From Mycobacterium sp. (GTDB lineage: Bacteria; Actinomycetota; Actinomycetes; Mycobacteriales; Mycobacteriaceae), in NCBI GenBank assembly GCA_018882965.1, contig VEQY01000012.1, forward strand, positions 1 through 64,000: 64,000 nucleotides of DNA. Reading direction: 5' to 3'. The notes under the pieces are model-generated. The model was not told the DNA's origin, did not search any database, and saw only the letters and a list, made by a program, of their open reading frames with translations. How positions within the stretch are numbered: position 1 is the stretch's first letter; every line of letters begins with the position of its first letter. Of the stretch, positions 6,790 through 26,103 are shown piece by piece. A program made the position numbers and the translations under genes.

Positions 6790-9700
6790 GTGTCCCAGGT
6801 CTCGGGTGACGACGTGCGCGCACTGCGTGCGCGGCTGGACGGTGTCGCTCTCACCGACGCGGTGCGGCTGGGCCGGCGACTGACGTCGCTGCGGGCGCCG
6901 GTACGGGCGGAGGCCCTGCAGGCGCTCGAGCGCGAGGTCGCGGCGGCCGAGGCGCATCTGGCTGCGCGCCGGGACGCCGTGCCCGTGATCGGCTACCCCG
7001 ATCTTCCGATCAGCCGACACCGCGCCGAGCTTGCCGCAGCCATCCGCGACCATCAGGTCGTGGTCGTCGCCGGCGAGACCGGATCGGGGAAGACGACCCA
7101 GCTGCCCAAGATCTGCCTCGAACTCGGGCGCGGTGTGCGCGGCGTCATCGGGCACACCCAGCCGCGGCGGCTTGCCGCGCGCACCGTGGCGCAGCGCATC
7201 GCCGACGAGCTGCACACCCCGCTGGGCGAAGCAGTGGGCTACAGCGTTCGCTTCAATGACCGGGTCGGTGAGCGAACCCTGATCAGGCTGATGACCGACG
7301 GAATCCTGCTTGCCGAGATCCGTCGTGACCGGCGGTTGCTGCGCTATGACACCCTGATCATCGACGAGGCCCACGAACGCAGCCTCAACATCGATTTCCT
7401 GCTGGGCTATCTGCGACACCTGCTGCCACGACGCCCCGACCTCAAGCTGATCATCACATCGGCCACCATCGAGCCCCGACGATTCGCCGACCACTTCGGC
7501 GGGGCACCGGTCGTCGAGGTGTCCGGGCGCGGGTACCCGGTCGAAATCCGTTACCGGCCGTTGGACCTCACCGCTGCCGCGGCGTCCGGAGACGACCCCG
7601 ACGACCCCGATCACGAGGTGGTCCGGGTCGAGCCGAAGGACCAGACCGAAGCGATCATCGCCGCCCTGCGCGAGTTGACCAAAGAGCCGCCCGGCGACGT
7701 TCTGGTGTTCCTGTCCGGTGAGCGCGAAATCCGCGACACCGCCGAGGCGGTCGCCGCCGCGATCACCGGCGTGCAGGTGCTTCCGCTCTATGCGCGGTTG
7801 GCCACCGCGGAGCAGCAGAAGGTTTTCCGACCGAACACCAGCCGGATTCACCGTCGCGTCGTTCTGGCCACCAACGTCGCCGAGACCTCGCTGACCGTGC
7901 CGGGCATCCGCTACGTCGTCGATCCCGGAACCGCGCGAATCTCGCGGTACAGCAGACGCACCAAGGTGCAACGGCTGCCGATCGAGCCGATCTCCCAGGC
8001 GTCGGCCGCGCAGCGGGCTGGGCGCTCGGGCCGCACCGCACCGGGAATCTGCATCCGGCTCTACTCCGAAGAGGACTTTGACACCAGACCCCGCTACACC
8101 GACCCGGAGATCCTGCGCACCAATCTGGCGGCGGTGCTGCTACAGATGGCGGCCCTGCGGCTGGGCGAGATCGACAGCTTCCCGTTCCTCGACGCACCCG
8201 ATCATCGCAGTGTCCGCGACGGCGTCCAGCTGCTCACCGAGCTCGGTGCCGTCGACGCGGATGGAACCATTACCGATCTCGGTCGGCGGCTGGCGCGTCT
8301 CCCCATCGACCCGCGCCTCGGCCGGATGCTGCTTGCCGCGGAGAACGAGGGCTGCGTCCGAGAGGTGCTGGTCCTTGTCGCCGCGCTGGCGATCCCCGAC
8401 CCCCGGGAGCGCCCTGCCGACCGTGAAGCCGCAGCCCTGCAGAAGCACGCCCGCTTCGCGGACGAACAGTCGGACTTCCTGTCCTTCCTCAACCTGTGGC
8501 GCTATCTACAGGGTCAGCGGAAGGCTCTGACGGGCAGCGCCTTCCGCCGCATGTGCCGGGAGGAATTCCTGCACTATCTGCGCATCCGGGAGTGGCAGGA
8601 TCTGGTCGGTCAACTGCGGGGAATCGCCCGCGACATCGGCGTACGCGAGTCGGACCACCAGGACGTTCCCGATCCGACCCGCGTGCACGCGGCTCTGGTA
8701 GCCGGATTGCTTTCGCACGTGGGGTTGCGCGAAGGCGACTCCCGGGAGTACACCGGGGCCCGGAACGCCCGATTCGTTCTCGCACCCGGATCGGTGTTGA
8801 CCAAGCGTCCGCCGCGCTGGGTGATGGTCGCCGACCTGGTGGAGACCAGCCGACTCTACGGGCGGGTGGCGGCACGTATCGACCCCGAAACAGTCGAACG
8901 GGCGGCCGGGCATCTGGTGCAGCGCACCTACAGCGAACCGCACTGGGACGCCCGCCGCGGTGAGGTACTGGCCTATGAGCGGGTGACGCTCTACGGGCTG
9001 CCCCTGGTGACACGCCGGCGAGTCGGCTACGCCCAGGTGGACCCGGCGACGGCCCGGGACCTTTTCATCCGGTCGGCTCTGGTCGAGGGCGACTGGCAGA
9101 GCCGGCACCGCTTTCTCGCCGCCAATGCCGAGTTGCGTGCGCAGCTTTCTCAACTCGAGGACCGAGCCCGCCGCCGCGACCTGCTGGTCGACGACGAGGC
9201 GATCTACGCCTTCTACGACTCTCGCATCCCGGCGGATGTCGTCTCGGCCCGCCACTTCGACGGGTGGTGGGGCAAGGCGCGTCGGGGTGACCCCGATCTG
9301 CTGACGATGACGAGAGACGACCTGCTGCGGGTCCACGACGCCGACACCGACCGCCCGGACTTTTGGCGGTCGGGTGATCTGACGATGCCGCTGAGCTACC
9401 GCTACGAGCCGGGCGCATCCGACGACGGTGTCACGGTGCACGTCCCGGTCAGCGCGCTGGCCCGCATCGGCGGAGCCGAGTTCGGTTGGCAGGTACCAGC
9501 CCTGCGCGAAGAACTCGTGACCGCATTGATCCGCTCGCTGCCGAAGGATCTGAGGCGCAACTTCGTTCCGGCACCCGACACCGCCCGAGCCGTGCTGGGC
9601 GCCATCGAGATCGGTGACGAGCCCCTGCTGGACGTCCTGCAGCGCGAGCTGCACCGGCGGACGGGGGTGCTGGTACCGGTCGATGCCTTCGACCTGGACA

Positions 9701-10698
9701 AGGTTCCCGCGCACCTGCGGCTGACCTTCGCCGTCGAGGCGCCCGATGGAACCGAGGTGGCGCGCGGCAAGGACTTGCGCGCGCTACAGGATCGCCTGGC
9801 CGACCAGACCCGCCGCGCGGTCAGCGACGCGCTGGCACCCAGCCTCGAGCGATCCGGACTGCGGAGCTGGCCCGACGACCTTGAGGAGCTGCCCCGATGT
9901 GTTGAGCGCGACGGTGTGCGCGGATACCCGGGACTGGTCGATTCCCCCGCCGGTGTCGACATCCGGGTCTTCGCGACCGAGCCTGAACGTGACGCCGCGA
10001 TGCGCGGCGGCTACCGGCGGCTGCTGCGGCTGGGTACAGCCTCGCCGGTGAAGTCGCTGGAGAAAAAGCTCGACCCCCGCCGGCGCCTCACTCTCAGCGC
10101 GAATCCGGATGGGTCACTCTCAGCCCTGTTGGACGACTGCGTGGACGCCGCGGTAGACGTCCTCAGTGGTCCGCCGGTCTGGACCGGGACGGAGTTCGCG
10201 GCAGCGCAGCGCCGGGTGTCCGAGGGCCTTCCCAACGCCATGGAAGCCATCCTCGAGCGCGTCGAGAAGGTGGTGATCGAACTGCACACCGTGCAGGTGG
10301 GGCTGCCCGCCGATCCCCCGCCGGCTCACGCCGAGGCCGTGGCGGACATGCGCGACCAGATCACCGGGCTGCTGCCGCGTGGATTCGTCGCCGCCGCGGG
10401 CGCCGCGCATCTGGGCGACCTCGCCCGTTATCTGACGGCGATACGGCGAAGACTCGAGCGGCTCCCGCAGGCACCGTCGGCCGACCGTGACCGGATGCAA
10501 CGGGTGCACACGCTTCAGGCGGCCTACGACGATCTGGTCGGCGCTCTGTCGCCGGGGCGGGCGGCCGCAGACGACGTCCGTGACATCGCTTGGATGATCC
10601 AGGAGTTCCGGGTGAGCCTGTGGGCTCAGCAGTTGGGTACCCCCAAGCCCGTCAGTGAACAGCGGATCTACCGAGCCATCGACGCGGTCCTGAGCTGA
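6790..10698 (+). CDS. hrpA: ATP-dependent RNA helicase HrpA (DEAH box)
   Basis: VVVAGETGSGKTTQLPK, DEAHERSLNIDFLLGYL, TSATIEPRRF, AQRAGRSGR motifs; ~1300 aa with HrpA-type C-terminus. Confidence 0.95.
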   Translation: MSQVSGDDVRALRARLDGVALTDAVRLGRRLTSLRAPVRAEALQALEREVAAAEAHLAARRDAVPVIGYPDLPISRHRAELAAAIRDHQVVVVAGETGSGKTTQLPKICLELGRGVRGVIGHTQPRRLAARTVAQRIADELHTPLGEAVGYSVRFNDRVGERTLIRLMTDGILLAEIRRDRRLLRYDTLIIDEAHERSLNIDFLLGYLRHLLPRRPDLKLIITSATIEPRRFADHFGGAPVVEVSGRGYPVEIRYRPLDLTAAAASGDDPDDPDHEVVRVEPKDQTEAIIAALRELTKEPPGDVLVFLSGEREIRDTAEAVAAAITGVQVLPLYARLATAEQQKVFRPNTSRIHRRVVLATNVAETSLTVPGIRYVVDPGTARISRYSRRTKVQRLPIEPISQASAAQRAGRSGRTAPGICIRLYSEEDFDTRPRYTDPEILRTNLAAVLLQMAALRLGEIDSFPFLDAPDHRSVRDGVQLLTELGAVDADGTITDLGRRLARLPIDPRLGRMLLAAENEGCVREVLVLVAALAIPDPRERPADREAAALQKHARFADEQSDFLSFLNLWRYLQGQRKALTGSAFRRMCREEFLHYLRIREWQDLVGQLRGIARDIGVRESDHQDVPDPTRVHAALVAGLLSHVGLREGDSREYTGARNARFVLAPGSVLTKRPPRWVMVADLVETSRLYGRVAARIDPETVERAAGHLVQRTYSEPHWDARRGEVLAYERVTLYGLPLVTRRRVGYAQVDPATARDLFIRSALVEGDWQSRHRFLAANAELRAQLSQLEDRARRRDLLVDDEAIYAFYDSRIPADVVSARHFDGWWGKARRGDPDLLTMTRDDLLRVHDADTDRPDFWRSGDLTMPLSYRYEPGASDDGVTVHVPVSALARIGGAEFGWQVPALREELVTALIRSLPKDLRRNFVPAPDTARAVLGAIEIGDEPLLDVLQRELHRRTGVLVPVDAFDLDKVPAHLRLTFAVEAPDGTEVARGKDLRALQDRLADQTRRAVSDALAPSLERSGLRSWPDDLEELPRCVERDGVRGYPGLVDSPAGVDIRVFATEPERDAAMRGGYRRLLRLGTASPVKSLEKKLDPRRRLTLSANPDGSLSALLDDCVDAAVDVLSGPPVWTGTEFAAAQRRVSEGLPNAMEAILERVEKVVIELHTVQVGLPADPPPAHAEAVADMRDQITGLLPRGFVAAAGAAHLGDLARYLTAIRRRLERLPQAPSADRDRMQRVHTLQAAYDDLVGALSPGRAAADDVRDIAWMIQEFRVSLWAQQLGTPKPVSEQRIYRAIDAVLS

Positions 10699-10699
10699 G

Positions 10700-11866
10700 T
10701 TACCCGGTTGCCACGCTAACCGCGCCGGCGTGGGCGACCGCATCGTCGAGCACCAGCTCCGCGACACGGGACCGGTGCTGTTCGGGGTTGCCCAGCAGTG
10801 CGGCGTTGGTGGTGGCGCGCTTGAAGTAAAGGTGCGCCTGGTGCTCCCAGGTGAAGCCGATCCCGCCGTGCACCTGGATGGCGTCGGCGGCGATGCGGCT
10901 CAGCGCGGCCGAGCACGTCGCCTGCGCGATGCTGGCGGCGAGGGCGGGGTCGTCGGAGCCCGCGGCCAGCGCCCAGACGGCGTGATACGCCGTCGACCGG
11001 GCGTGCTCGAGATCGACGAGCATGTCGGCCAGGCGGTGCTTGACGGCCTGAAAGGAACCGATCGGGCGGCCGAACTGCAGGCGCGACTTGGCGTAGTCCA
11101 CCGACAGGTCCAGCAGATGCTGAGCGGCCCCCACCTGCTCGACGGCCAGCAGCGTCGCCGCCACCTGCAGGGCGTGATCGATGACCCGCTCGGCCTCGCC
11201 GGGACCGGCGAGCAGCTGCGCGGGTGTGCCGTCGAACACGACGGCGGCCTGTGGCCGGGTCAGGTCCAGCGTCACCAGCGGGGTGCGCTGGGTGTCGGTC
11301 CCCTCGACGACGTAGAGGCCCACACCGTCCGGCCCGCGGGCGGCCACCAGGATGTGGTCGGCGGCTCCGGCATCCACGACCCGCGCGGCGCTGCCGGTGA
11401 TCGTGACATCTGTTCCGCCCGCCGTCGCGGTCAGCGTGACCGCGGCGGGTTCGAACGCCCCGGCGCGGTCGGCGACCGCAACAGCCGCGGTAAGTTCGCC
11501 CTCGATCAGTGCGGCCAGCAGAGCATCGCGGGCCGGCCCGCCCGGGCAGGCCACCAGTGCCGGGATGGCCAGGTACACGGTGCCGAAGAGCGGTCCGCAG
11601 GCCAGCGCGGCGCCGAATTCCTCGACGGCGACCGCCTGGTCTACCAGAGAGCCGCCCACACCCCCGTCGCTTTCCGGTACGGCCATGCCCAGCGCGCCGA
11701 TCTCAGATCCCAGCCGGTGCCAGACCTGTGGATCGAACGGGGTGTCGGACTCCATCAGCGCGCGCACGGTTGGCTCGCTGAAGTTCTCCGCGCAGAATTT
11801 CCGGACCGCGGCGCGCAGCTGCTGCTGTTCGTCACTGAACAGGAAGGTCCCACCGGGGCTAGCCAC
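10700..11866 (-). CDS. Acyl-CoA dehydrogenase
   Basis: FSDEQQQLRAAVRKFCAENF..., YAKSRLQFGRPIGSFQAVKHRLADM, IQVHGGIGFTWEHQAHLYFKRA; GTG start inferred. Confidence 0.9.
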   Translation of the reverse strand: MASPGGTFLFSDEQQQLRAAVRKFCAENFSEPTVRALMESDTPFDPQVWHRLGSEIGALGMAVPESDGGVGGSLVDQAVAVEEFGAALACGPLFGTVYLAIPALVACPGGPARDALLAALIEGELTAAVAVADRAGAFEPAAVTLTATAGGTDVTITGSAARVVDAGAADHILVAARGPDGVGLYVVEGTDTQRTPLVTLDLTRPQAAVVFDGTPAQLLAGPGEAERVIDHALQVAATLLAVEQVGAAQHLLDLSVDYAKSRLQFGRPIGSFQAVKHRLADMLVDLEHARSTAYHAVWALAAGSDDPALAASIAQATCSAALSRIAADAIQVHGGIGFTWEHQAHLYFKRATTNAALLGNPEQHRSRVAELVLDDAVAHAGAVSVATG

Positions 11867-15210: not shown

Positions 15211-15414
15211 CCCCTATGTTTGCGATCCGCAAGTCAGCAAACAGTCTCTCGAAGCCGCGCCGGCACCGCCACGGCCCCGGGTGCCCGACGGCCGGAGGTA
15301 AAGCAGACTAGTCAAAGGCATACCGAACAAACGGCTTCCTGCTGTTGCGAATGAGATCATCGAGATTGCTGCGACGGGTGTCGACGAACTGTCCCCAGGG
15401 ACCGCTGAACTGAA

Positions 15415-15443
15415 TTGACCGTGTTGAACGCCATCGCCATACT
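15415..15443 (+). promoter_or_regulatory. Candidate SigA-type promoter (TTGACC-17-CATACT) for the eccB/eccC operon
   Basis: -35 TTGACC 15415-15420, 17-nt spacer, -10 CATACT 15438-15443; predicted TSS at or near the ATG at 15450 (leaderless). Confidence 0.45.
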
Positions 15444-15449
15444 GTGCCG

Positions 15450-15767
15450 ATGCATGGGGCCACAGGGGGAGGTTGGCTTAGCGACAGGGAACTCGTCGAC
15501 TCCGTCCTACGCGAACTCGGCGAGGCGGCAGAGCGATGGGAAGCCCTTCTCGCACAGGCTGAAGCCGTCACATACAGCGTTGACACCGGAGACATCCAGG
15601 CCGTTGCGAACTCCGATGGCAAACTCATCGATCTTGTCCTGCAGCCGTCGGTGATGACCGACTACAGCCACGGGGAACTCGCCGATCGGCTCAACGTGGT
15701 CTTCGCGGCACTCCGCGACGAGGCCGAGGAGGACTACCGCACCCGATACGGCGGAACGCCGCGATGA
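15450..15767 (+). CDS. YbaB/EbfC-like small protein, ESX-associated type
   Basis: LLAQAEAVTYSVDTGDIQAVANSDGKLIDLVLQPSVMTDYSHGELADRLNVVFAALRDEAEEDY resembles the YbaB fold; 13 nt upstream of eccB. Confidence 0.7.
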   Translation: MHGATGGGWLSDRELVDSVLRELGEAAERWEALLAQAEAVTYSVDTGDIQAVANSDGKLIDLVLQPSVMTDYSHGELADRLNVVFAALRDEAEEDYRTRYGGTPR

Positions 15768-15780
15768 ACACGGCGCACCG

Positions 15781-17277
15781 ATGGACTCCGGGGGCGCGGC
15801 GATGCCGCTGAACCTGTCCAACCGCGATCAGAGTTCGGGTCATCTGTTCTACAACCGGCGTCTGCGCTCGGCGATCACCCGTTTCTCGGTGCGCATGAAA
15901 CATGACGACCGCAAGCAGCAGGCCGCCCTCGCCCTCGCGGTGGTGTTCGTCCTGCTGGGGTGCGCGTGGATGGCTCTGCTCAATGTGGTGAAGCCGGCCG
16001 GTCTGGTCGGCGAGTCCGTGGTCGTCGGTGACCGGGATACCGGGGCGCTCTACGCGAAGATCGACGGCAGGTTGCACCCCGCGCTCAATCTCGCCTCGGC
16101 CCGGCTCGCGACCGGCAGTGCCGCCGCGCCGGCCTGGGTCACCTCCGGCGAGATCGCCAAGCTGCCCACCGGGCCGTTGATCGGGATCGCCGGAATCCCC
16201 GACGGCTATCCGGCCGGGGGTCCACGTTCGGCATGGGCGCTCTGTGACACCGCGCGGGCCGGCGGCGAACGCCCGGTGCTGACCGCGATCGCCGGCGACC
16301 TCTCCGGCGGCCGGGCCGAACCCATGGACCCCGCCGAGGCCATCCTCGCCCGCCACGCCGGAGCGACCTACCTGATCTGGAACGGCAGGCGGACCCGAAT
16401 CGACGCCTCTGATCGGGCAGTCGCCTTCACCCTCGGTCTCGATCCGAAAGCCGCACGCCCGGTCGAGATCTCCACACCACTCTTCGACGCGATACCCGCG
16501 ACCGAACCACTGGCGGTCCCGAGGATTCCGGGATTCGCCTCGCCGTCACGCTTGCTGCCCGGCGCCCGGGTGGGACAGGTACTCGAGACCCGCGATGCCA
16601 CCGGCACGGTCAGCGGTCTCTACGTGCTACTCCCCGACGGAGTTCAGCAGGTGAGCCCCTTCGTGGCCGATCTTCTGCGCGCCTCCGGGAGAGGGGGCAT
16701 CGCGGCGCCGCAGACCGTCTCACCGGATCGGCTCGTCGCCCTGCCCCAGATCAGGGTGCTCGCTGTCGATTACTACCCGACCGGCAGGCTGAGATTCGTT
16801 GACAGCCAAACCAATCCGGTCACCTGTGTCAGCTGGACGAAGTTGATCAGCGACCCCCAGGCGTCGGTCACGGTGCTCACCGGCCGCGGGCTGCCCACAC
16901 CGCAGGCCCTTGATTCCCACATCGTCGATCTCGTTCGCGGCGGCGGCGAACCGGGCTCGGCGCAGGCGGACCGGACGCTGGTGCTCCCCGGTGCGGCCCG
17001 TCTGGTGGTCTCGACCAGCGGGGTCATCACCTCTGACACCCGCGAAAGCCTGTTCTGGGTCTCGCCTCAGGGGGTGCGCTTCGGTATCGCGGGAGATCAG
17101 AAAACGCTCCAGGCGCTGGGGATCGATCCGCTCCGCGCAGTGCAGGCACCGTGGCCGATGCTGCGCACCTTTGCACCGGGGCCCGAGGTCAGTCAGACCG
17201 GCGCGCTGGTTGCCCGCGACGCGCTCATCGGGGCCGGACCGGCGGCGTCGCTGACGCCGGAATCCACAGGGGGATAG
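15781..17277 (+). CDS. eccB: Type VII secretion protein EccB
   Basis: LSNRDQSSGHLFYNRRLRSAITRFSVRM, single N-terminal TM, SLFWVSPQGVRFGIAGDQKTLQALGI, APWPMLRTFAPGPEVS: EccB hallmarks. Confidence 0.93.
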   Translation: MDSGGAAMPLNLSNRDQSSGHLFYNRRLRSAITRFSVRMKHDDRKQQAALALAVVFVLLGCAWMALLNVVKPAGLVGESVVVGDRDTGALYAKIDGRLHPALNLASARLATGSAAAPAWVTSGEIAKLPTGPLIGIAGIPDGYPAGGPRSAWALCDTARAGGERPVLTAIAGDLSGGRAEPMDPAEAILARHAGATYLIWNGRRTRIDASDRAVAFTLGLDPKAARPVEISTPLFDAIPATEPLAVPRIPGFASPSRLLPGARVGQVLETRDATGTVSGLYVLLPDGVQQVSPFVADLLRASGRGGIAAPQTVSPDRLVALPQIRVLAVDYYPTGRLRFVDSQTNPVTCVSWTKLISDPQASVTVLTGRGLPTPQALDSHIVDLVRGGGEPGSAQADRTLVLPGAARLVVSTSGVITSDTRESLFWVSPQGVRFGIAGDQKTLQALGIDPLRAVQAPWPMLRTFAPGPEVSQTGALVARDALIGAGPAASLTPESTGG

Positions 17278-17279
17278 CG

Positions 17280-20200
17280 TTGTCCAAGAAAGCATTCGCC
17301 CGCGGTCCGCGAGTCGCCCAACCGGCCATCGCTCCGGTGCGGATCGTCATCGAGCCACCGGTTGGCCTTCCGGAGCGGGAACCGCGCAACATCCTGCTGA
17401 TGATCGCCGCACCGGCTCTGCTCGTCGGCATCCTCGGCACCCTGGCGGTGATGTACTCCTCCGGCGTGAGGTCCCTGCAGTCCGGCTTCTTCCCCGTGAT
17501 CGGCCTCGTGGGCTTCGGGGCCTTGATGTTCAGCGGAAGATTCGGCCGCGGCCGCCGAATCAGCTGGGGAGAGCTGGAACAACAGCGCCGGTCCTACCTG
17601 CGGCGGCTCGATGAGGATCGCGAAGAGGTACAGCGGGCAGCCCGGCGTCACCGCAACGCGCGAGTGTTCGCCCACGCCGATCCGCGCAGACTCGACACCG
17701 TCATCGGCGGTCCGCGGATGTGGGAGCGCCGCCCTTCGGATCCGGATTTCCTCGACGTGCGCCTCGGTATCGGCACACAGTCGGCGGCAGACTCCGGCAC
17801 GGCCTTTCACTGGCCGGAAATCCCGATCGGTGAGGAACTCGAGCCTGTCACCGGCCGCGCTCTTCGCGACTTCATGCTCGCGCAGCGTTCGATCCCTGAC
17901 GTCGGCAAGGTGCTCAGCCTCCGCTCCCGACCAGGGTTCAGCTTCATCGGCGATCCGGCGGATCTGTACGCCCTGATGAGATCGGTGCTGTGTTCGCTGG
18001 CGGTCTACCACAGTCCCGACGAGGTCAAGTTCTTGGTGGTGACCCGCCATCCGGAGCGGTGGTCCTGGCTGGTGTGGCTACCGCACAACCAGCACGACGA
18101 GATGTTCGACGCCTGTGGACTGCGGCGTCTGGTTTTCGCCTCGCCGGCCGATCTCGAGGAGGCGCTGGACGGCGAGCTGCACCGCAAGGGACGCGGGCCC
18201 TGGTCGCCTCCGGACGGATCGAGTCCGACGACCACGCCGACGGTTCTGGAGCCGAACGCGGTCCCCTCGCTCGGGCCGCACTGGATCATCGTCGACGACA
18301 ACACCGGCACCCCCGACCAGTGGGAAGGGGTGACCGGGCGCAAAGGCAAGGCCGGCATCACCGTGTTGCGGTTGGCGAACCGGGCCGGTACCGGGGTGGG
18401 GTTCGGTGACGACGGTGAGTGCTTCGAACTGCGGGAGGACCGGCTGCTGCACCGCGGTTCGCCGTTCGCCGTCGCCGACCTGCTCGCCGAGAGCACGGCT
18501 GACCGCTATGCGCGCGCGCTGGCGCGCTGGTCACCGACGGCCACCGGGGGAGGTCCCGGGGACGAGGGACAGGGCGAGGCGCTGTTGCGGGCCCTGGGCA
18601 TCAGCGACCCGCGCTACCTGGACGTGGACCGCCTGTGGGCGCACAGCCGGGGTAGGGGCGACCCGCACTGGGCGATGATCCCCGTCGGGGTGAAACCCGG
18701 AGGCGAGGTTGCGCACATCGTTCTGCGAGCCAAGGATTTCGGCGGTTACGGCTTCCACTCAGTGGTGATCGGGACCTCGGGTTCGGGAAAGTCCGAGTAC
18801 TTCCTGGCGCTGTGCAACGGCATCGCACTGACCCACTCACCGGAGAGCTTCATCGTCATCTTCGTGGATATGAAGTTCGAGTCTGCGGCCCAAGATCTCG
18901 ACGGACTGCCGCATGTTGCGGGGTCGCTGTCGAATCTCGGCAAGGACGATCGCCACCTCGCCGAGCGGATGCGCAAGGCAGTAGACGGTGAGATCGCCCG
19001 CCGGTATCGGTTGTTCAAGAACGCCGGCGCCCGGGACGCGAACGAATACGAGGAGATGAGAATTGCCGGGCGTGATCTCGAGCCCGTTCCGATCCTGCTG
19101 GTGATCATCGACGAGTATCTCGAACTGTTCCACCACCACCCCGAATGGATCGACCTCGTCATCCACATCGGCCAGGAGGGCCGCGGCTGCAACGTCTTTT
19201 TCACCCTCGGAGGTCAGCGCCTCGATCTCTCCTCACTGAGTAAGGTGAAAAGCAACATCGCCTTCCGGGTGGCGCTGCGCGCCGAGACGGCCGAAGACTC
19301 TCGCGATGTAATCGGCAGCGACGCCGCTCTGCATCTTCCATCGAAGCAGAACGGGTACGCGCTGTTGAAGGTCGGACCGCGCGAGATCGAACAGTTCCGC
19401 TGTTTCTACGTCTCGGCGCCCTTCACGGTGCCCGCCAAGCCCGCTGTCGATCGGACCGTCGCGCTGTCCTTCAGTCAGCCGAGGTCCCTCACGTGGCAGT
19501 ACCAGCCGCTCAGCGTGGGGGACGCCAGGGCCTTGGAGACCGTGCACGACGATGATGAGCCTGACCAATTCCTCTATCACGCAGACGGATTCAAGAAGAA
19601 GAAGCTACTCGACGTCATCCGGGAAGCACTCGCCTCCAATCCCGCGCGCCCACCGCACCAGATCTGGCTTCCCCCGCTGGAGGTCAGCGAGACTGCCGAT
19701 GCGCTGGTGAGCCGATGGCGGGGCAAACCGTGGTGGCAGGACTATGGCGACAACCCGGGCCTTGTGTTCCCGGTGGCGGTGGTGGACTGTCCAGAAGACC
19801 ACGCGCAGCGGATCCACGCCGTCGACGTGGAGATGGACAACGTGATGGTGGTTGCCACCGCGCAGCGGGGGAAGTCGACCACGTTGATGACGCTGATCAC
19901 CAGTGCGGCCCTGATGTACCGACCCGAGCGGGTGACGTTCTACTGCATCGGCGCGTCGCTGCATTCGGTGGCCGACATACCCCACGTCGCAGGTGTCGTC
20001 AGCACCACTGACGGCGACGGTGTCTCCCGGGTGATCGCCACCATTGAGGGCCTCATTCGGGCCCGGGAGGCCGCGTTCAAAGAGCTGCAGATCGACGTGT
20101 CGGAGTTCCGCAGGCGGCGCGTCAGAGCGGACGCCGCGGTGACGGCGGGCGCCGAGGAGGTCGGGGACGTCTTCCTGGTGATCGACAATTTCGGCGACTT

Positions 20201-21335
20201 CTATGACAAGGACGGCGGTCTGGGCGACCGGGCGATCGCGATCGCCCGCCAGGGGCTGTCCTACGGGGTGCACGTGGTCACCAGTGCCAGCGGCTGGCTG
20301 GTCGGCCAGAAGCAGGCCCTGCTCAACGTCGCCAACGCCCGAATCCAGCTGCGCCTGAGCAATCCCGACGAGACGCAGATGGGCACCGGCATCGAACACC
20401 GCCGCGCAGCCCGCCAGACGCTGGATCGCCCCGGATTCGGCGTCACGCGCAGCGGTCACGAGCTGCTCGTCGGTGTTCCGGAACTGACCGGACCGGACGG
20501 CGGGCGCATCCCGACCCGGGAGGTGGGCGCCGCGATCGCCGCCGCGACGGGCCTGGGCCGGCGGCATAGTCTGGTCCGGCTGCCCGACCGGATCGCCCTG
20601 CGAGACATCCTGACCGCAACGGCTCTGACCGACGACGTGCCGTTCGCCATCGGCGAGAGCGCCCTGCAGCCGGTGGTGCTGGCCACCCGGCAGGTCCCCA
20701 ATCTGCTGGTCGTCGGCCGGCAGGGGTGCGGCAAGACGACGACCCTGGCGGCCATCGGGCAGGCGGTCAGCGCCAGGATGACCCCCGAGCAGGCGCAGCT
20801 CACGATCATCGACCCCAAGACCACCCTGATCGGCACGATCCAGGGCCCGTGCGTGCGCGCCTACGCCTACACCCCCGAGGACATCGACCGGGTCATCGCT
20901 GAATTGGCCGCCCTGGTGAGTGACCGACTCCCGCCGTCCGGGCTGACGCAGGAACAGCTGCTGGCCCGGGCGTCCTGGCACGGGCCCCGCCACTTCGTCC
21001 TCATCGACGACGAGCAGGAACTGCGGCCGGCCGGGGTGGCCGGGCGGCCGGCCGCGACCGCGCCGCTGTGGACGCTGATCGAGCGCAGCCGGGAGATCGG
21101 CCTGCACGTCATCGCCACCAGGCTGCCGGGCAACTGGGCCGGCGTCTCGGCGATGAACCCGCTGATCGGGAAACTCGCGGGTTCGCGGGCATCCACGCTG
21201 TACATGGACAACGACCCGGCGATCAAGGTCTCCGGGCGGACCGGCGCGCGGCAGTTTCCGCCGGGCCGGGGCCTGCTGGTCAGCATCGAGGGTGCGATGG
21301 AGACGATCCTGGTCGGCGAGCCGGAGCGGGGTTAG
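17280..21335 (+). CDS. eccC: Type VII secretion ATPase EccC, single polypeptide with three FtsK/SpoIIIE domains
   Basis: TTG start at 17280, 2 nt after the eccB stop; 1351 aa; P-loops GTSGSGKSEY (D1), ATAQRGKSTTL (D2, degenerate), VGRQGCGKTTTL (D3); two N-terminal TM segments. Confidence 0.93.
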   Translation: MSKKAFARGPRVAQPAIAPVRIVIEPPVGLPEREPRNILLMIAAPALLVGILGTLAVMYSSGVRSLQSGFFPVIGLVGFGALMFSGRFGRGRRISWGELEQQRRSYLRRLDEDREEVQRAARRHRNARVFAHADPRRLDTVIGGPRMWERRPSDPDFLDVRLGIGTQSAADSGTAFHWPEIPIGEELEPVTGRALRDFMLAQRSIPDVGKVLSLRSRPGFSFIGDPADLYALMRSVLCSLAVYHSPDEVKFLVVTRHPERWSWLVWLPHNQHDEMFDACGLRRLVFASPADLEEALDGELHRKGRGPWSPPDGSSPTTTPTVLEPNAVPSLGPHWIIVDDNTGTPDQWEGVTGRKGKAGITVLRLANRAGTGVGFGDDGECFELREDRLLHRGSPFAVADLLAESTADRYARALARWSPTATGGGPGDEGQGEALLRALGISDPRYLDVDRLWAHSRGRGDPHWAMIPVGVKPGGEVAHIVLRAKDFGGYGFHSVVIGTSGSGKSEYFLALCNGIALTHSPESFIVIFVDMKFESAAQDLDGLPHVAGSLSNLGKDDRHLAERMRKAVDGEIARRYRLFKNAGARDANEYEEMRIAGRDLEPVPILLVIIDEYLELFHHHPEWIDLVIHIGQEGRGCNVFFTLGGQRLDLSSLSKVKSNIAFRVALRAETAEDSRDVIGSDAALHLPSKQNGYALLKVGPREIEQFRCFYVSAPFTVPAKPAVDRTVALSFSQPRSLTWQYQPLSVGDARALETVHDDDEPDQFLYHADGFKKKKLLDVIREALASNPARPPHQIWLPPLEVSETADALVSRWRGKPWWQDYGDNPGLVFPVAVVDCPEDHAQRIHAVDVEMDNVMVVATAQRGKSTTLMTLITSAALMYRPERVTFYCIGASLHSVADIPHVAGVVSTTDGDGVSRVIATIEGLIRAREAAFKELQIDVSEFRRRRVRADAAVTAGAEEVGDVFLVIDNFGDFYDKDGGLGDRAIAIARQGLSYGVHVVTSASGWLVGQKQALLNVANARIQLRLSNPDETQMGTGIEHRRAARQTLDRPGFGVTRSGHELLVGVPELTGPDGGRIPTREVGAAIAAATGLGRRHSLVRLPDRIALRDILTATALTDDVPFAIGESALQPVVLATRQVPNLLVVGRQGCGKTTTLAAIGQAVSARMTPEQAQLTIIDPKTTLIGTIQGPCVRAYAYTPEDIDRVIAELAALVSDRLPPSGLTQEQLLARASWHGPRHFVLIDDEQELRPAGVAGRPAATAPLWTLIERSREIGLHVIATRLPGNWAGVSAMNPLIGKLAGSRASTLYMDNDPAIKVSGRTGARQFPPGRGLLVSIEGAMETILVGEPERG

Positions 21336-21513
21336 GGTCGGCTAAGTTGGCGCAGCCCGCCGTGGTTGACCTATTGTTTTAGCAGTTGTGGACCTCGCTT
21401 AGTCACCCCGATGGGCAGTTCGGAGCAGGCCACGGCAGGGCCGCCGTCCAGCGACGCACGGGGGTACCCGATCACGCGTTGAACGGACGAATCGCCGCGC
21501 GAGAGAAGGTTCA

Positions 21514-24500
21514 GTGATGCCCCAGAGCGCAGGGTTGTACGACCCCGCCTTTGAGCACGACGCCTGTGGTGTCGCCATGGTCGTCGACATGCACGGCCGG
21601 CGCAGCCGCGACATCGTCGATCACGCCATCACCGCCCTGCTGAACCTGGAGCATCGCGGGGCCGCCGGCGCCGAACCGCACAGCGGCGACGGAGCCGGCA
21701 TCATGCTGCAGGTGCCCGACCGGTTCCTGCGGGCGGTGTGCCGGGAGCAGGGCGACATCGAGCTGCCGGCCGAGGGCAGCTACGCCACCGGTATCGCCTT
21801 CCTGCCGCAGTCGGCGCGTGACGCCGGGGCGGCCTGTGACGCGGTCGAGAAGATCGTCGAAGCCGAGGGCCTGACCGTGCTCGGCTGGCGATCGGTCCCC
21901 ACCGACGACTCTTCGCTGGGCGCGCTCGCCCGCGACGCCATGCCGACCTTCCGTCAGCTGTTCATCGGCGGGGCCTCCGGGATGGACCTGGAGCGCCGCG
22001 CCTATGTCGTGCGCAAGCGCGCCGAGCACGAGCTCGGCACCAAGGGTCCCGGCCAGGACGGCCCGGGCCGGGAGACGGTCTACTTCCCGAGCCTCTCCGG
22101 GCGCACCCTGATCTACAAGGGCATGCTGACCACGCCGCAGCTGAAGGCCTTCTACCTCGATCTGCAAGACGAGCGGATGGAGAGCGCGCTGGGCATCGTG
22201 CACTCGCGCTTCTCCACCAACACCTTCCCGTCCTGGCCGCTGGCACATCCGTTCCGCCGGATCGCCCACAACGGTGAGATCAACACGGTCACCGGCAACG
22301 AGAACTGGATGCGCGCCCGTGAAGCGCTGATCGACACCGACGTCTTCGGCCCGGACGTGACGAAGATCTTCCCGGTGTGCACACCGGGTGCCTCCGACAG
22401 CGCCCGCTTCGATGAGGTTCTCGAACTCCTGCACCTTGGCGGCCGCAGCCTGGCCCACGCGGTGTTGATGATGATCCCCGAGGCCTGGGAACGACACCCG
22501 ACGATGGATCCGGCCAGGCGGGCGTTCTATGCGTATCACTCCGCCCTGATGGAGCCCTGGGACGGCCCCGCCTCGGTGTGCTTCAGCGACGGCACCATCG
22601 TCGGTGCGGTCCTCGACCGCAACGGGTTGCGACCGTCGCGCATTTGGGTGACCGACGACGGTCTGGTGGTGATGGCCTCCGAGTCCGGCGTCCTCGATCT
22701 CGACCCCGCGCGGGTCGTCAAACGAATGCGGCTGCAGCCCGGCCGCATGTTCCTGGTCGACACCGCGCAGGGCAGGATCATCGCCGACGAGGAGATCAAA
22801 GCCGAACTCGCCGCCGAGCACCCCTATCAGGAGTGGCTCGCCTCCGAGCAGTTCCACCTCGATGACCTGCCGCAGGGCCCCTACATCCGCATGCCCCACC
22901 ACCGGGTGGTCCTGCGCCAGTTGGCGTTCGGCTACAGCTACGAGGAACTCAACCTTCTGGTCGCCCCGATGGCGCGCACCGGCGCAGAGCCGATCGGCTC
23001 GATGGGTACCGACACCCCGATCGCGGTCCTGTCCACTCGGCCCCGGATGCTGTACGACTATTTCCAGCAGCTCTTCGCCCAGGTGACCAACCCTCCGCTG
23101 GATGCCATCCGCGAGGAGGTCGTGACGAGCCTGCAGGCCGCGGTGGGGCCGGAGGGCGATCTGCTCAATCCGGTGCCGGAGTCCTGTCACCAGATCGTTC
23201 TGCCGCAACCGATCCTGCGCAATCACGAACTGGCCAAACTGGTCAACCTCAACCCCGAGGACGAGGTCAACGGTCACCGCCACGGAATGCGGTCAGCGGT
23301 CATCCGCTGTCTGTACCCGGTGGCCAAGGGCGGGTCCGGCCTGCGCCGCGCACTCGATGACATTCGGGCCGCGGCATCCCAAGCGATCGCCGAGGGCGCC
23401 CGGATCCTCATCCTCTCCGATCGGGAGTCCAACGAGGCCTTCGCGCCGATTCCCTCGCTGCTCTCGGTCGCGGCTGTGCACCATCACCTGGTGCGTGAAC
23501 GCACCCGAACCCAGGTCGGCCTGGTCGTGGAGTCCGGTGACGCCCGCGAGGTGCACCACATGGCGATGCTCATCGGGTTCGGTGCCGGAGCGATCAACCC
23601 CTACATCGCTTTCGAGTCGATCAGCGACATGATCGACCGGGGGATCATCACCGGTCTCGATCGCGAGAAGGCACTGCAGAACTACATCAAGGCCGCCGGC
23701 AAGGGCGTGCTCAAGGTGATGTCGAAGATGGGGATCTCCACCGTCGCCTCCTACACCGGTGCCCAACTGTTTCAGGCCATCGGCATCTCGCAGAAGGTGC
23801 TTGACGAGTACTTCACCGGGTTGACCTGCCCGGTGGGCGGCATCGACCTCGATGACATCGCCGCCGATGTCGCCGCCCGGCATCAGCTTGCCTACCTCGA
23901 CCGTCCCGACGAGCGTGCGCACCGCGAACTGGAGGTCGGTGGCGAGTACCAGTGGCGCCGCGAGGGGGAGTTCCACCTGTTCAACCCCGACACGGTCTTC
24001 AAGTTGCAGCACTCCACGCGCAGCGGCCAGTACGAGGTGTTCAAGGAATACACCAAGCTCGTCGATGACCAGAGTGAGCGCATCGCCTCGCTGCGCGGTC
24101 TGCTGAAGTTCAAAGAGGGCGTGCGCCCTCCGGTGCCCCTCGAGGAGGTGGAGCCGGCGGCCGAGATCGTCAAACGTTTCTCCACCGGAGCGATGAGTTA
24201 CGGCTCGATCTCGGCCGAGGCGCACGAGACGCTGGCTATTGCGATGAATCGGCTTGGTGGCCGGTCGAATTCAGGCGAGGGAGGCGAGGCGGTAAGCCGG
24301 TTCGACCGCGACGCCAACGGCGATTGGCGCCGCAGCGCCATCAAGCAGGTCGCCTCCGGCCGGTTCGGCGTCACCAGCCACTACCTGACCAATTGCACCG
24401 ACATCCAGATCAAGATGGCGCAGGGGGCCAAGCCGGGCGAGGGCGGCCAACTGCCCGGCCACAAGGTGTACCCGTGGGTCGCGGAGGTCCGTCACTCCAC

Positions 24501-26103
24501 GCCCGGTGTCGGGCTGATCTCGCCTCCGCCGCATCACGACATCTACTCCATCGAGGATCTCGCGCAGCTGATCTACGACCTCAAGAACGCCAACCCCGCC
24601 GCCCGCATCCACGTGAAGCTGGTCTCCGAGAACGGCGTGGGGACGGTTGCGGCCGGCGTGTCCAAGGCGCACGCCGACGTGGTGCTGATCTCCGGTCACG
24701 ACGGCGGCACCGGTGCCACTCCGCTGACGTCGATGAAGCACGCCGGAGCGCCCTGGGAGCTCGGGCTGGCCGAGACCCAGCAGACGCTGCTGCTCAACGG
24801 GCTGCGCGACCGGATCGTCGTCCAGGTCGACGGCCAACTCAAGACCGGCCGCGACGTCGTCGTCGCAGCGCTGCTCGGTGCGGAGGAGTTCGGGTTCGCG
24901 ACCGCCCCGCTGGTGGTCTCCGGCTGCATCATGATGCGGGTATGCCACCTCGACACCTGCCCGGTCGGGGTGGCGACCCAGAACCCGGTGTTGCGTGAGC
25001 GGTTCAACGGCAAGCCCGAGTTCGTGGAGAATTTCTTCATGTTCATCGCCGAAGAGGTCCGCGAGTTCATGGCCCAACTCGGGTTCCGGACCGTCAACGA
25101 GATGGTCGGCCAGGTCGGCGTCCTGGACACCACCCGGGCGGCCGCGCACTGGAAAGCGCACAAGCTCGATCTGACGCCGGTCCTGCACGAACCGGACTCG
25201 GCGTTCATGAACCAGGATTTGTACTGCAGCTCACGTCAGGACCACGGATTGGACAAGGCACTCGATCAGCAGCTGATCGCGCAGTGTCGCGAGGCGCTGG
25301 ATTCCGGTGAGCCGGTGCGCTTCACCACCAGAATCGCCAACACCAACCGCACTGTCGGCACCATGCTCGGCCACGAGGTGACCAAAGCCCACGGAGGGAA
25401 CGGTCTGCCCGACGGCACCATCGACATCACCTTCGACGGTTCGGCGGGGAACAGCTTCGGTGCCTTCGTTCCGGCCGGTATCACGCTGCGGGTGCGCGGA
25501 GATGCCAACGACTATGTCGGCAAGGGCCTCTCGGGAGGCCGAATCGTGCTGCGGCCCTCCGAGGACGCGCCGCAGGACTACGTGGCCGAGGACAACATCA
25601 TCGGCGGCAACGTCATCCTGTTCGGCGCCACCAGCGGGCAGGCGTTCATCCGCGGGATGGTGGGGGAGCGGTTCGCGGTCCGCAACTCCGGCGCTCACGC
25701 CGTCGTCGAGGGCGTCGGTGATCACGGCTGCGAGTACATGACCGGAGGCAAGGTCGTGATCCTCGGCCCGACTGGGCGAAACTTCGCCGCCGGCATGTCC
25801 GGTGGCGTCGCCTACGTCTACGACCCGCACGGTCACCTGCCCCAGAATCTCAACGCCGAGATGGTCGACCTCGAGGAACTCGACGACACCGACGTGGAGT
25901 GGCTGCACGACATCCTGGTCGCCCACCGGGACGCGACGGATTCCGCCCCGGCCCGGCGCGCTCTGGAGGAGTGGCCCCGTCAGGCCGGGGACTTCGCCAA
26001 GGTCATGCCGCGCGACTACAAGCGCGTGTTGAAGGCGATCGAGCAGGCCGAACGCAGCGGGGCCGATATCGACCAGGCGATCATGGCGGCTGCTCATGGC
26101 TGA
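21514..26103 (+). CDS. gltB: Glutamate synthase large subunit
   Basis: 1529 aa; N-terminal [18 protein letters not shown] (Ntn amidotransferase), [34 protein letters not shown]. Confidence 0.98.

What the first reader, a model, noticed from the sequence alone, without database searches (positions are those of the whole stretch)
15450..21335. Minimal ESX cassette: YbaB-like + eccB + single-chain eccC, with no other ESX components in view
Seen: three tightly packed intact genes (gaps of 13 and 2 nt) encode a YbaB-like protein, EccB and a 1351-aa EccC. No eccA, eccD, eccE, mycP, espG, PE/PPE or esx (WXG100) gene is recognisable anywhere in the 64 kb. Known: canonical mycobacterial ESX loci encode EccB/C/D/E, MycP and Esx substrates together. 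Inference: this is either a split system whose membrane partners and substrates are encoded elsewhere, an auxiliary EccB/EccC pair that retargets another ESX machine, or a reduced motor with a new role. Intact frames and a plausible promoter argue against simple decay.
Basis: partly seen in the sequence, partly recalled or inferred. Interest (0 to 1): 0.75.

Follow-up and report, generated by a model that had tools for sequence, protein, structure and literature searches.

The report
One half of a split ESX-2 secretion system
The window holds the motor half (DUF2710–eccB–eccC) of a mycobacterial protein-export machine, an ESX-2-type type VII secretion system, whose other genes sit on another contig of the same genome; this splitting is already known in other mycobacteria, but here it appears to be the cell's only ESX machine, which would be unusual.

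Summary
In detail: an intact three-gene cassette (DUF2710, eccB, 1351-aa eccC) stands alone in the 64 kb. It is neither a reduced motor nor an auxiliary pair. The same genome (a 3.35-Mb Mycobacterium assembly, 95% complete) carries the missing parts, PE–PPE–esx–esx–espG–MinD-like–eccD–mycP–eccE–eccA, intact on contig C26. Each core component was found only once, so the two halves must form one machine. EccC is closest to M. tuberculosis EccC2, so the system is ESX-2-type, a sister lineage of classical ESX-2.

Relatives show the ancestral contiguous locus, eccB–eccC–PE…eccA–gltB. In the window a gltB-leader-like sequence begins inside the last eccC codons, as if PE–eccA had been removed there. 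The cassette keeps its own promoter, conserved in 70 of 74 loci, which may be why the locus has broken repeatedly (at least 5 changes on the EccC tree).

Split ESX-2 loci are published for M. avium paratuberculosis, the M. avium complex and M. paragordonae, so this is a new case of a known kind. More unusual: this genome and several aquatic relatives, two of them 97% complete, show no ESX-3 or ESX-4, contrary to the published rule. All are metagenome assemblies, so that needs a closed genome.

The parts
15366..15371 (+). TTGCTG element upstream of the cassette promoter, shared with some relatives and with some PE-half promoters (possible regulator site, unproven)
   Evidence: Present upstream of DUF2710 in 28 of 74 loci (about 2.7 expected) and upstream of PE in 11 of 53 (about 1.9 expected); position read from sequence
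15415..15443 (+). Conserved promoter TTGACC-17-CATACT of the cassette; its -10 box abuts the first gene, so the transcript is probably leaderless
   Evidence: this promoter type found in 70 of 74 loci wherever the cassette lies, 0.04 expected in shuffles
15450..15767 (+). DUF2710 protein (105 aa, distantly YbaB-like), first gene of the cassette
   Evidence: PF10921 E 1.5e-44; PF02575 below cut-off; upstream of eccB in nearly every relative whose locus reaches that far
15781..17277 (+). eccB, ESX-2 type; the only eccB found in the genome
   Evidence: TIGR03919 440 bits, PF05108 454 bits; single copy
17280..21335 (+). eccC, single-chain ESX-2-type motor ATPase (TTG start, 1351 aa); the only eccC found in the genome
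   Evidence: TIGR03924/TIGR03925; closest solved relative of its last ATPase domain is M. tuberculosis EccC2; single copy
18771..18794 (+). Walker A of EccC ATPase domain 1, GTSGSGKS
19854..19877 (+). Walker A-type loop of EccC ATPase domain 2, ATAQRGKS
20715..20738 (+). Walker A-type loop of EccC ATPase domain 3, GRQGCGKT
21327..21513 (+). Junction: gltB-leader-like sequence (CGGGGTTAGG.CGG.CTAAGTTGG...) that begins inside the last codons of eccC and appears to supply its final residues and stop; in relatives this leader follows eccA
   Evidence: By-eye comparison with the eccA-gltB spacers of L159, L162, L168, L170, L175 and with EccC C-termini of relatives
21514..26103 (+). gltB (neighbour, not part of the system; marks the ancestral position)
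   Evidence: sequence; eccA-gltB adjacency in L159, L162, L168, L170, L175
13879..15210 (+). FAD/NAD(P) oxidoreductase (upstream neighbour, conserved marker of the ancestral position; true start probably further in)
   Evidence: PF07992; upstream of the cassette in L014, L016, L020, L022, L075, L087

Best explanation
This is the motor half of a single ESX-2-type type VII secretion system whose genes lie in two separate chromosomal operons. Operon 1 (window) is DUF2710-eccB-eccC under its own promoter. Operon 2 (contig C26) is PE-PPE-esx-esx-espG-MinD-like-eccD-mycP-eccE-eccA under a second promoter. The proteins are expected to assemble as in ESX-5: EccB, EccC, EccD, EccE and MycP form the inner-membrane complex, EccC drives export of the Esx and PE/PPE pairs, EspG is their chaperone, and EccA assists. 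The split arose when the PE-eccA block left its ancestral place between eccC and gltB. Because each half already had its own promoter, breaking at eccC|PE costs little, which would explain why it has happened repeatedly. Shown: both halves intact, single copies, ancestral contiguous order in relatives, promoter conservation, co-divergence of EccC and EccD, junction sequence. Inferred: joint assembly, substrates, near-neutrality of the break.
For: Single EccB, EccC, EccD, EccE and MycP in the assembly (EccB and EccD repeated in 38, 59). C26 carries the complementary set in ESX-2 order. ESX-2 type: EccC domain 3 scores 240 bits against M. tuberculosis EccC2 (6jd5), 127/113 against EccC5, 89 against EccCb1, 64 against EccC3; MinD-like gene between espG and eccD. 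The contiguous locus with the same gene order exists in relatives. An eccD match was found in 35 of 39 relatives searched, in many on a different contig or about 67 kb away on the opposite strand (M. simulans, M. triplex). EccC and EccD distances correlate across 45 genomes (r 0.89, 0 of 2000 permutations; r 0.87 in split genomes alone). Junction sequence at eccC-gltB and eccA-gltB adjacency in other genomes. Own conserved promoter. Published precedents: PMC2763215, PMC4791881, PMC6616192.
Against: The genome is a draft in 113 contigs; the distance between the halves is unknown (at least about 19 kb if the nearest contig ends were joined). No expression, complex or secretion data exist. The Mantel correlation measures shared history of the genomes as well as of the proteins. 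EccC and EccD nearest neighbours are not identical, as can happen for a long branch. The junction homology was judged by eye from short sequences. C26 was assigned to this genome by binning; composition agrees but does not discriminate between mycobacteria.
Confidence: 0.92

Rival explanations
1. Auxiliary EccB/EccC pair that plugs into or retargets another complete ESX machine of the cell.
For: The cassette is separate and has its own promoter.
Against: No other EccB, EccC, EccD, EccE or MycP was found, so there is no second machine to retarget. EccC and EccD co-diverge.
Confidence: 0.03
2. Decaying remnant: the cassette is left over from a locus that is being lost.
For: Relatives do show decay by internal deletion: Mycobacterium sp. 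BK086 (L087) and G004 have an eccC-eccA fusion, and G031 has a broken eccC.
Against: All frames are intact, Walker motifs are kept, third-position divergence greatly exceeds first and second, the promoter is conserved, and the partner half is intact.
Confidence: 0.03
3. Assembly or binning artefact: the locus is really contiguous, and the eccC-gltB join is a chimaera.
For: Draft assembly; eccA-gltB adjacency in relatives means that a collapse could produce eccC-gltB.
Against: On C26 PE is preceded by an O-methyltransferase-like frame and GGT, and eccA is followed by a molybdopterin oxidoreductase instead of gltB, so both ends of the moved block have different neighbours. Separation is seen in many independent assemblies, including large contigs of M. 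simulans and M. triplex.
Confidence: 0.03
4. The eccB-eccC cassette was acquired horizontally and replaced the native pair (as proposed for M. paragordonae).
For: Proposed in PMC6616192 for M. paragordonae; ESX systems occur on plasmids, one of them in M. paragordonae 47.6% identical in EccC.
Against: No plasmid EccC above 60% identity; EccC-EccD distance correlation; the cassette still sits at the ancestral position between the oxidoreductase and gltB with a gltB-leader-like junction.
Confidence: 0.06

Closest known systems
ESX-2 of M. tuberculosis (Rv3884c-Rv3895c)
   Same: Single-chain EccC, same gene set, same order eccB-eccC-PE-PPE-esx-esx-espG-MinD-like-eccD-mycP-eccE-eccA in the unsplit relatives; EccC domain 3 about 50% identical
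   Different: Sister lineage: classical ESX-2 EccC is 70-88% identical to M. tuberculosis EccC2 in that domain, this lineage about 50%; locus split here, contiguous in M. tuberculosis
Split ESX-2 of M. avium subsp. paratuberculosis and the M. avium complex
   Same: eccB2 and eccC2 moved away from the rest of ESX-2 (PMC2763215; PMC4791881)
   Different: Described within ESX-2 proper; those species are described as carrying further ESX systems
Split chromosomal ESX-2 of M. paragordonae
   Same: ESX-2 genes in two distant regions, eccB2-eccC2-pe36 apart from the rest (PMC6616192)
   Different: Break one gene later (after PE); authors suggest acquisition of the second part; other ESX systems present
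ESX-2AN of M. tusciae
   Same: Described as an ancestral ESX-2-like cluster in a mycobacterium grouping with fast growers (PMC4791881)
   Different: Sequence not compared here; whether this lineage is ESX-2AN is a lead only
ESX-5 (EccC5, structures 7b9f, 7np7)
   Same: Same five membrane components; best full-length structural relative
   Different: ESX-5-like EccC paralogues about 34% identical; no cyp143 or ferredoxin in this locus

Membership tests
Type VII secretion system (ESX) | EccC FtsK/SpoIIIE ATPase and EccB membrane protein | tested here: met
   TIGR03919, TIGR03924, TIGR03925 above cut-off
Type VII secretion system (ESX) | EccD, EccE and MycP encoded in the same genome | tested here: met
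   One each on C26, all above cut-off
Type VII secretion system (ESX) | WXG100 (Esx) substrate pair | tested here: met
   C26:18186-18476 and 18498-18803
Type VII secretion system (ESX) | Secretion activity | not testable with these tools
   Needs secretome of mutants
ESX-2 subtype | EccC closer to EccC2 than to EccC of the other systems | tested here: met
   240 bits vs 127/113 (EccC5), 89 (EccCb1), 64 (EccC3); M. tuberculosis EccC2 domain 3 is about 50% identical to this lineage and 25-35% to the other paralogues listed
ESX-2 subtype | Gene content and order of ESX-2 (PE, PPE, esx pair, espG, MinD/EspI-like, eccD, mycP, eccE, eccA after eccC) | tested here: met
   Content and order kept across the two loci; contiguous in L013, L014, L016, L022
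ESX-2 subtype | Genes in one contiguous locus | tested here: not met
   Two contigs here; also not met in MAP, MAC and M. paragordonae, so not a strict criterion
Classical (M. tuberculosis-type) ESX-2 clade | EccC groups with L182-L188 | tested here: not met
   Those four rows, used as outgroup, are separated from the other 49 rows by a fully supported branch; this EccC is among the 49
YbaB/EbfC nucleoid protein family | PF02575 above gathering score | tested here: not met
   18.5 of 25.5 bits; the protein is DUF2710
Auxiliary EccB/EccC pair beside another ESX | A second ESX core in the genome | tested here: not met

The most novel reading that the evidence does not exclude
A lineage of small-genome aquatic mycobacteria lives with a single ESX system, the split ESX-2-type one, having lost ESX-3 and ESX-4, which are described as universal in mycobacteria (ESX-4 lost only in M. 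leprae; ESX-3 essential in M. tuberculosis). The split ESX-2-type machine may then have taken over whatever envelope or metal-uptake role ESX-3 serves elsewhere, or that role is dispensable in this lineage.
Probability: 0.65. Interest if true: 0.65.

Novelty: new member of a known kind. Interest (0 to 1): 0.42.

Why it matters
It settles that an apparently lone eccB-eccC cassette should be read as half of a split machine, and it suggests why such splits recur: the locus is two self-contained operons, the first with a promoter kept wherever it moves. If the single-ESX genomes hold up, they offer a natural case in which the unknown role of ESX-2-type secretion could be studied without the other four systems, and they contradict the stated minimum of ESX-3 plus ESX-4 in mycobacteria.

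Tried and rejected
First region requests failed because regions were one base too long. Counting ESX systems by eccD protein hits was rejected because it misses ESX-3/ESX-4 paralogues even in complete genomes; HMM counts were used instead. In the genus-wide EccB survey only three candidates per genome were scored, so its counts are lower bounds and were not used on their own to claim single-ESX genomes. The ESX-3 and ESX-4 insertion sites of M. litorale have flanks (sulfatase, siderophore-interacting protein, aldehyde dehydrogenase) that did not look usable for an empty-site test. The lysine/ornithine oxygenase family as a marker of mycobactin was too unspecific. Composition does not separate contigs of different mycobacteria. 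The GGT gene upstream of both PE on C26 and the cassette in L013 was considered as a clue to the mechanism (duplication with reciprocal loss), but only one relative has it there and the O-methyltransferase-like frame beside it was not found in L013, so it was not pursued.
Full report
What is there. The window carries three tightly packed, intact genes: a DUF2710 protein (15450-15767), eccB (15781-17277) and a single-chain eccC (17280-21335). EccC keeps three Walker A-type loops, and both eccB and eccC diverge from relatives mainly at third codon positions. No other ESX gene is in the window or in the rest of its 69.8-kb contig. The 'YbaB-like' label is only distantly right: the curated family is DUF2710, and PF02575 falls below its cut-off.

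Where the rest is. The window is contig C36 of a 3.35-Mb Mycobacterium draft genome in 113 contigs, 95% complete. Family and protein searches over the whole genome find one EccC, one EccB (both in the window), one EccD, one mycosin and one EccE, the last three on contig C26. C26 also has a WXG100 pair, EspG, a MinD-like ATPase, PPE, PE and EccA in the order PE-PPE-esx-esx-espG-MinD-eccD-mycP-eccE-eccA. With one copy of each core part, the two halves can only work together. That is an inference from gene content; no biochemistry was available. If the nearest contig ends were joined, the halves would still be about 19 kb apart.

Which ESX. The last ATPase domain of EccC matches the crystal structure of M. 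tuberculosis EccC2 with 240 bits, against 127/113 for EccC5, 89 for EccCb1 and 64 for EccC3. The gene order is that of ESX-2. Classical ESX-2 EccC proteins are 70-88% identical to M. tuberculosis EccC2 in that domain and this lineage about 50%, so it is a sister lineage of classical ESX-2. It might be what Newton-Foot et al. called ESX-2AN, but that was not tested.

Ancestral order and the break. In M. litorale, Mycobacterium sp. M26, ENV421, P1-5 and others the locus is contiguous: DUF2710-eccB-eccC-PE-PPE-esx-esx-espG-MinD-eccD-mycP-eccE-eccA. In several split relatives the PE-eccA half still ends directly at gltB (L159, L162, L168, L170, L175), and in strain BK086 an eccC-eccA deletion fusion sits before gltB (L087). 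In the window eccC is followed by gltB, and a sequence that looks like the gltB leader (CGGGGTTAGG.CGG.CTAAGTTGG) begins inside the last eccC codons; the EccC proteins of most relatives end earlier or differently. The simplest reading is that the PE-eccA block was removed from between eccC and gltB and now lies elsewhere. The homology of the leader was judged by eye.

How common. Among 39 named relatives searched with eccD, 35 have a match, and in many it lies on another contig or, in M. simulans and M. triplex, about 67 kb away on the opposite strand. Break points differ: eccC|PE (as here), PPE|esx in a slow-growing group, and PE-PPE apart from the esx-eccA half in four aquatic assemblies. 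On an EccC tree of 53 rows the complete/split label needs 7 changes, at least 5 of them forced by well-supported branches (quick tree, and the window's EccC is a long branch). EccC and EccD distances correlate across 45 genomes, r 0.89, and in the 27 split genomes alone, r 0.87, with 0 of 2000 permutations as high. That fits long-standing co-inheritance, though genome relatedness contributes.

Why it breaks there. A promoter of the form AATTGAC-N-ATACT lies immediately upstream of DUF2710 in 70 of 74 loci, wherever the cassette is (0.04 expected); in the window it is TTGACC-17-CATACT at 15415-15443, abutting the gene, so the transcript is probably leaderless. A second conserved element (TGAnTCGACA...TA) lies upstream of PE in 24 of 53 loci and in 9 of 11 split halves that could be checked (0.08 expected over all loci). 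So the locus seems to be two operons, at least in part of the group even when contiguous, and separating them need not break transcription. That this explains the recurrence is my inference.

What is known. 'The ESX-2 genes of M. [quoted passage not shown] 'the M. [quoted passage not shown] and M. paragordonae ESX-2 lies in two distant regions (PMC6616192). The split is therefore a new example of a known arrangement. [quoted passage not shown]

The less expected part. Newton-Foot et al. [quoted passage not shown] leprae, which lost ESX-4. In this genome HMM searches find one EccB and one EccD only. The same holds for related assemblies G061, G077, G082, G083, G090 and G091; G085 has one EccB and one full EccD plus a 45-residue fragment, G088 one EccB and one partial EccD. 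The EccB scores of G083, G085 and G088 coincide with those of G252 (97% complete), G310 (97%) and G167 (91%), from which I take their completeness. The same EccD search finds three or four systems in the control genomes G009, G024, G098 and G013, including divergent ones (G009's fourth match is a fragment). This pattern is hard to explain by 3-5% missing sequence in each, but all are metagenome assemblies and no empty site was shown. I found no report of it in the papers searched. I put 0.65 on it being real.

Noticed in passing
G000 C36/C26; G061, G077, G082, G083, G090, G091: Only one ESX system (EccB and EccD each once), none of ESX-3 or ESX-4 type, in this and several related small-genome mycobacterial assemblies.
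   Followed up: partly
L008 (G000:C46) 9566-9862 and 9673-11478: Orphan WXG100 gene beside a 601-aa frame with an alpha/beta-hydrolase domain (Abhydrolase_8): a candidate substrate pair of the single ESX system.
   Followed up: no
L087 10004-13310 (Mycobacterium sp. BK086); L116 (G004): Internal deletion has fused the front of eccC to the back of eccA, removing the ESX-2-type genes between them; seen in two genomes.
   Followed up: partly
L033 and L034 (M. numidiamassiliense), with eccD at G093:C1:24240 and C1:174199: The eccB-eccC-PE-PPE cassette and eccD each occur twice in inverted orientation on one contig: possibly a large inverted duplication of both halves.
   Followed up: no
window 15366-15371; upstream of PE in L154, L156, L158, L159, L170, L175: A TTGCTG element occurs upstream of both operon promoters in part of the clade; possible shared regulator site keeping the two operons co-regulated.
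   Followed up: partly
G413 (3.2 Mb, 97% complete) and G267 (3.8 Mb, 94%): Mycobacterium genomes without any detectable EccB; G413 has only an 81-residue EccD-like fragment, G267 one full EccD.
   Followed up: no
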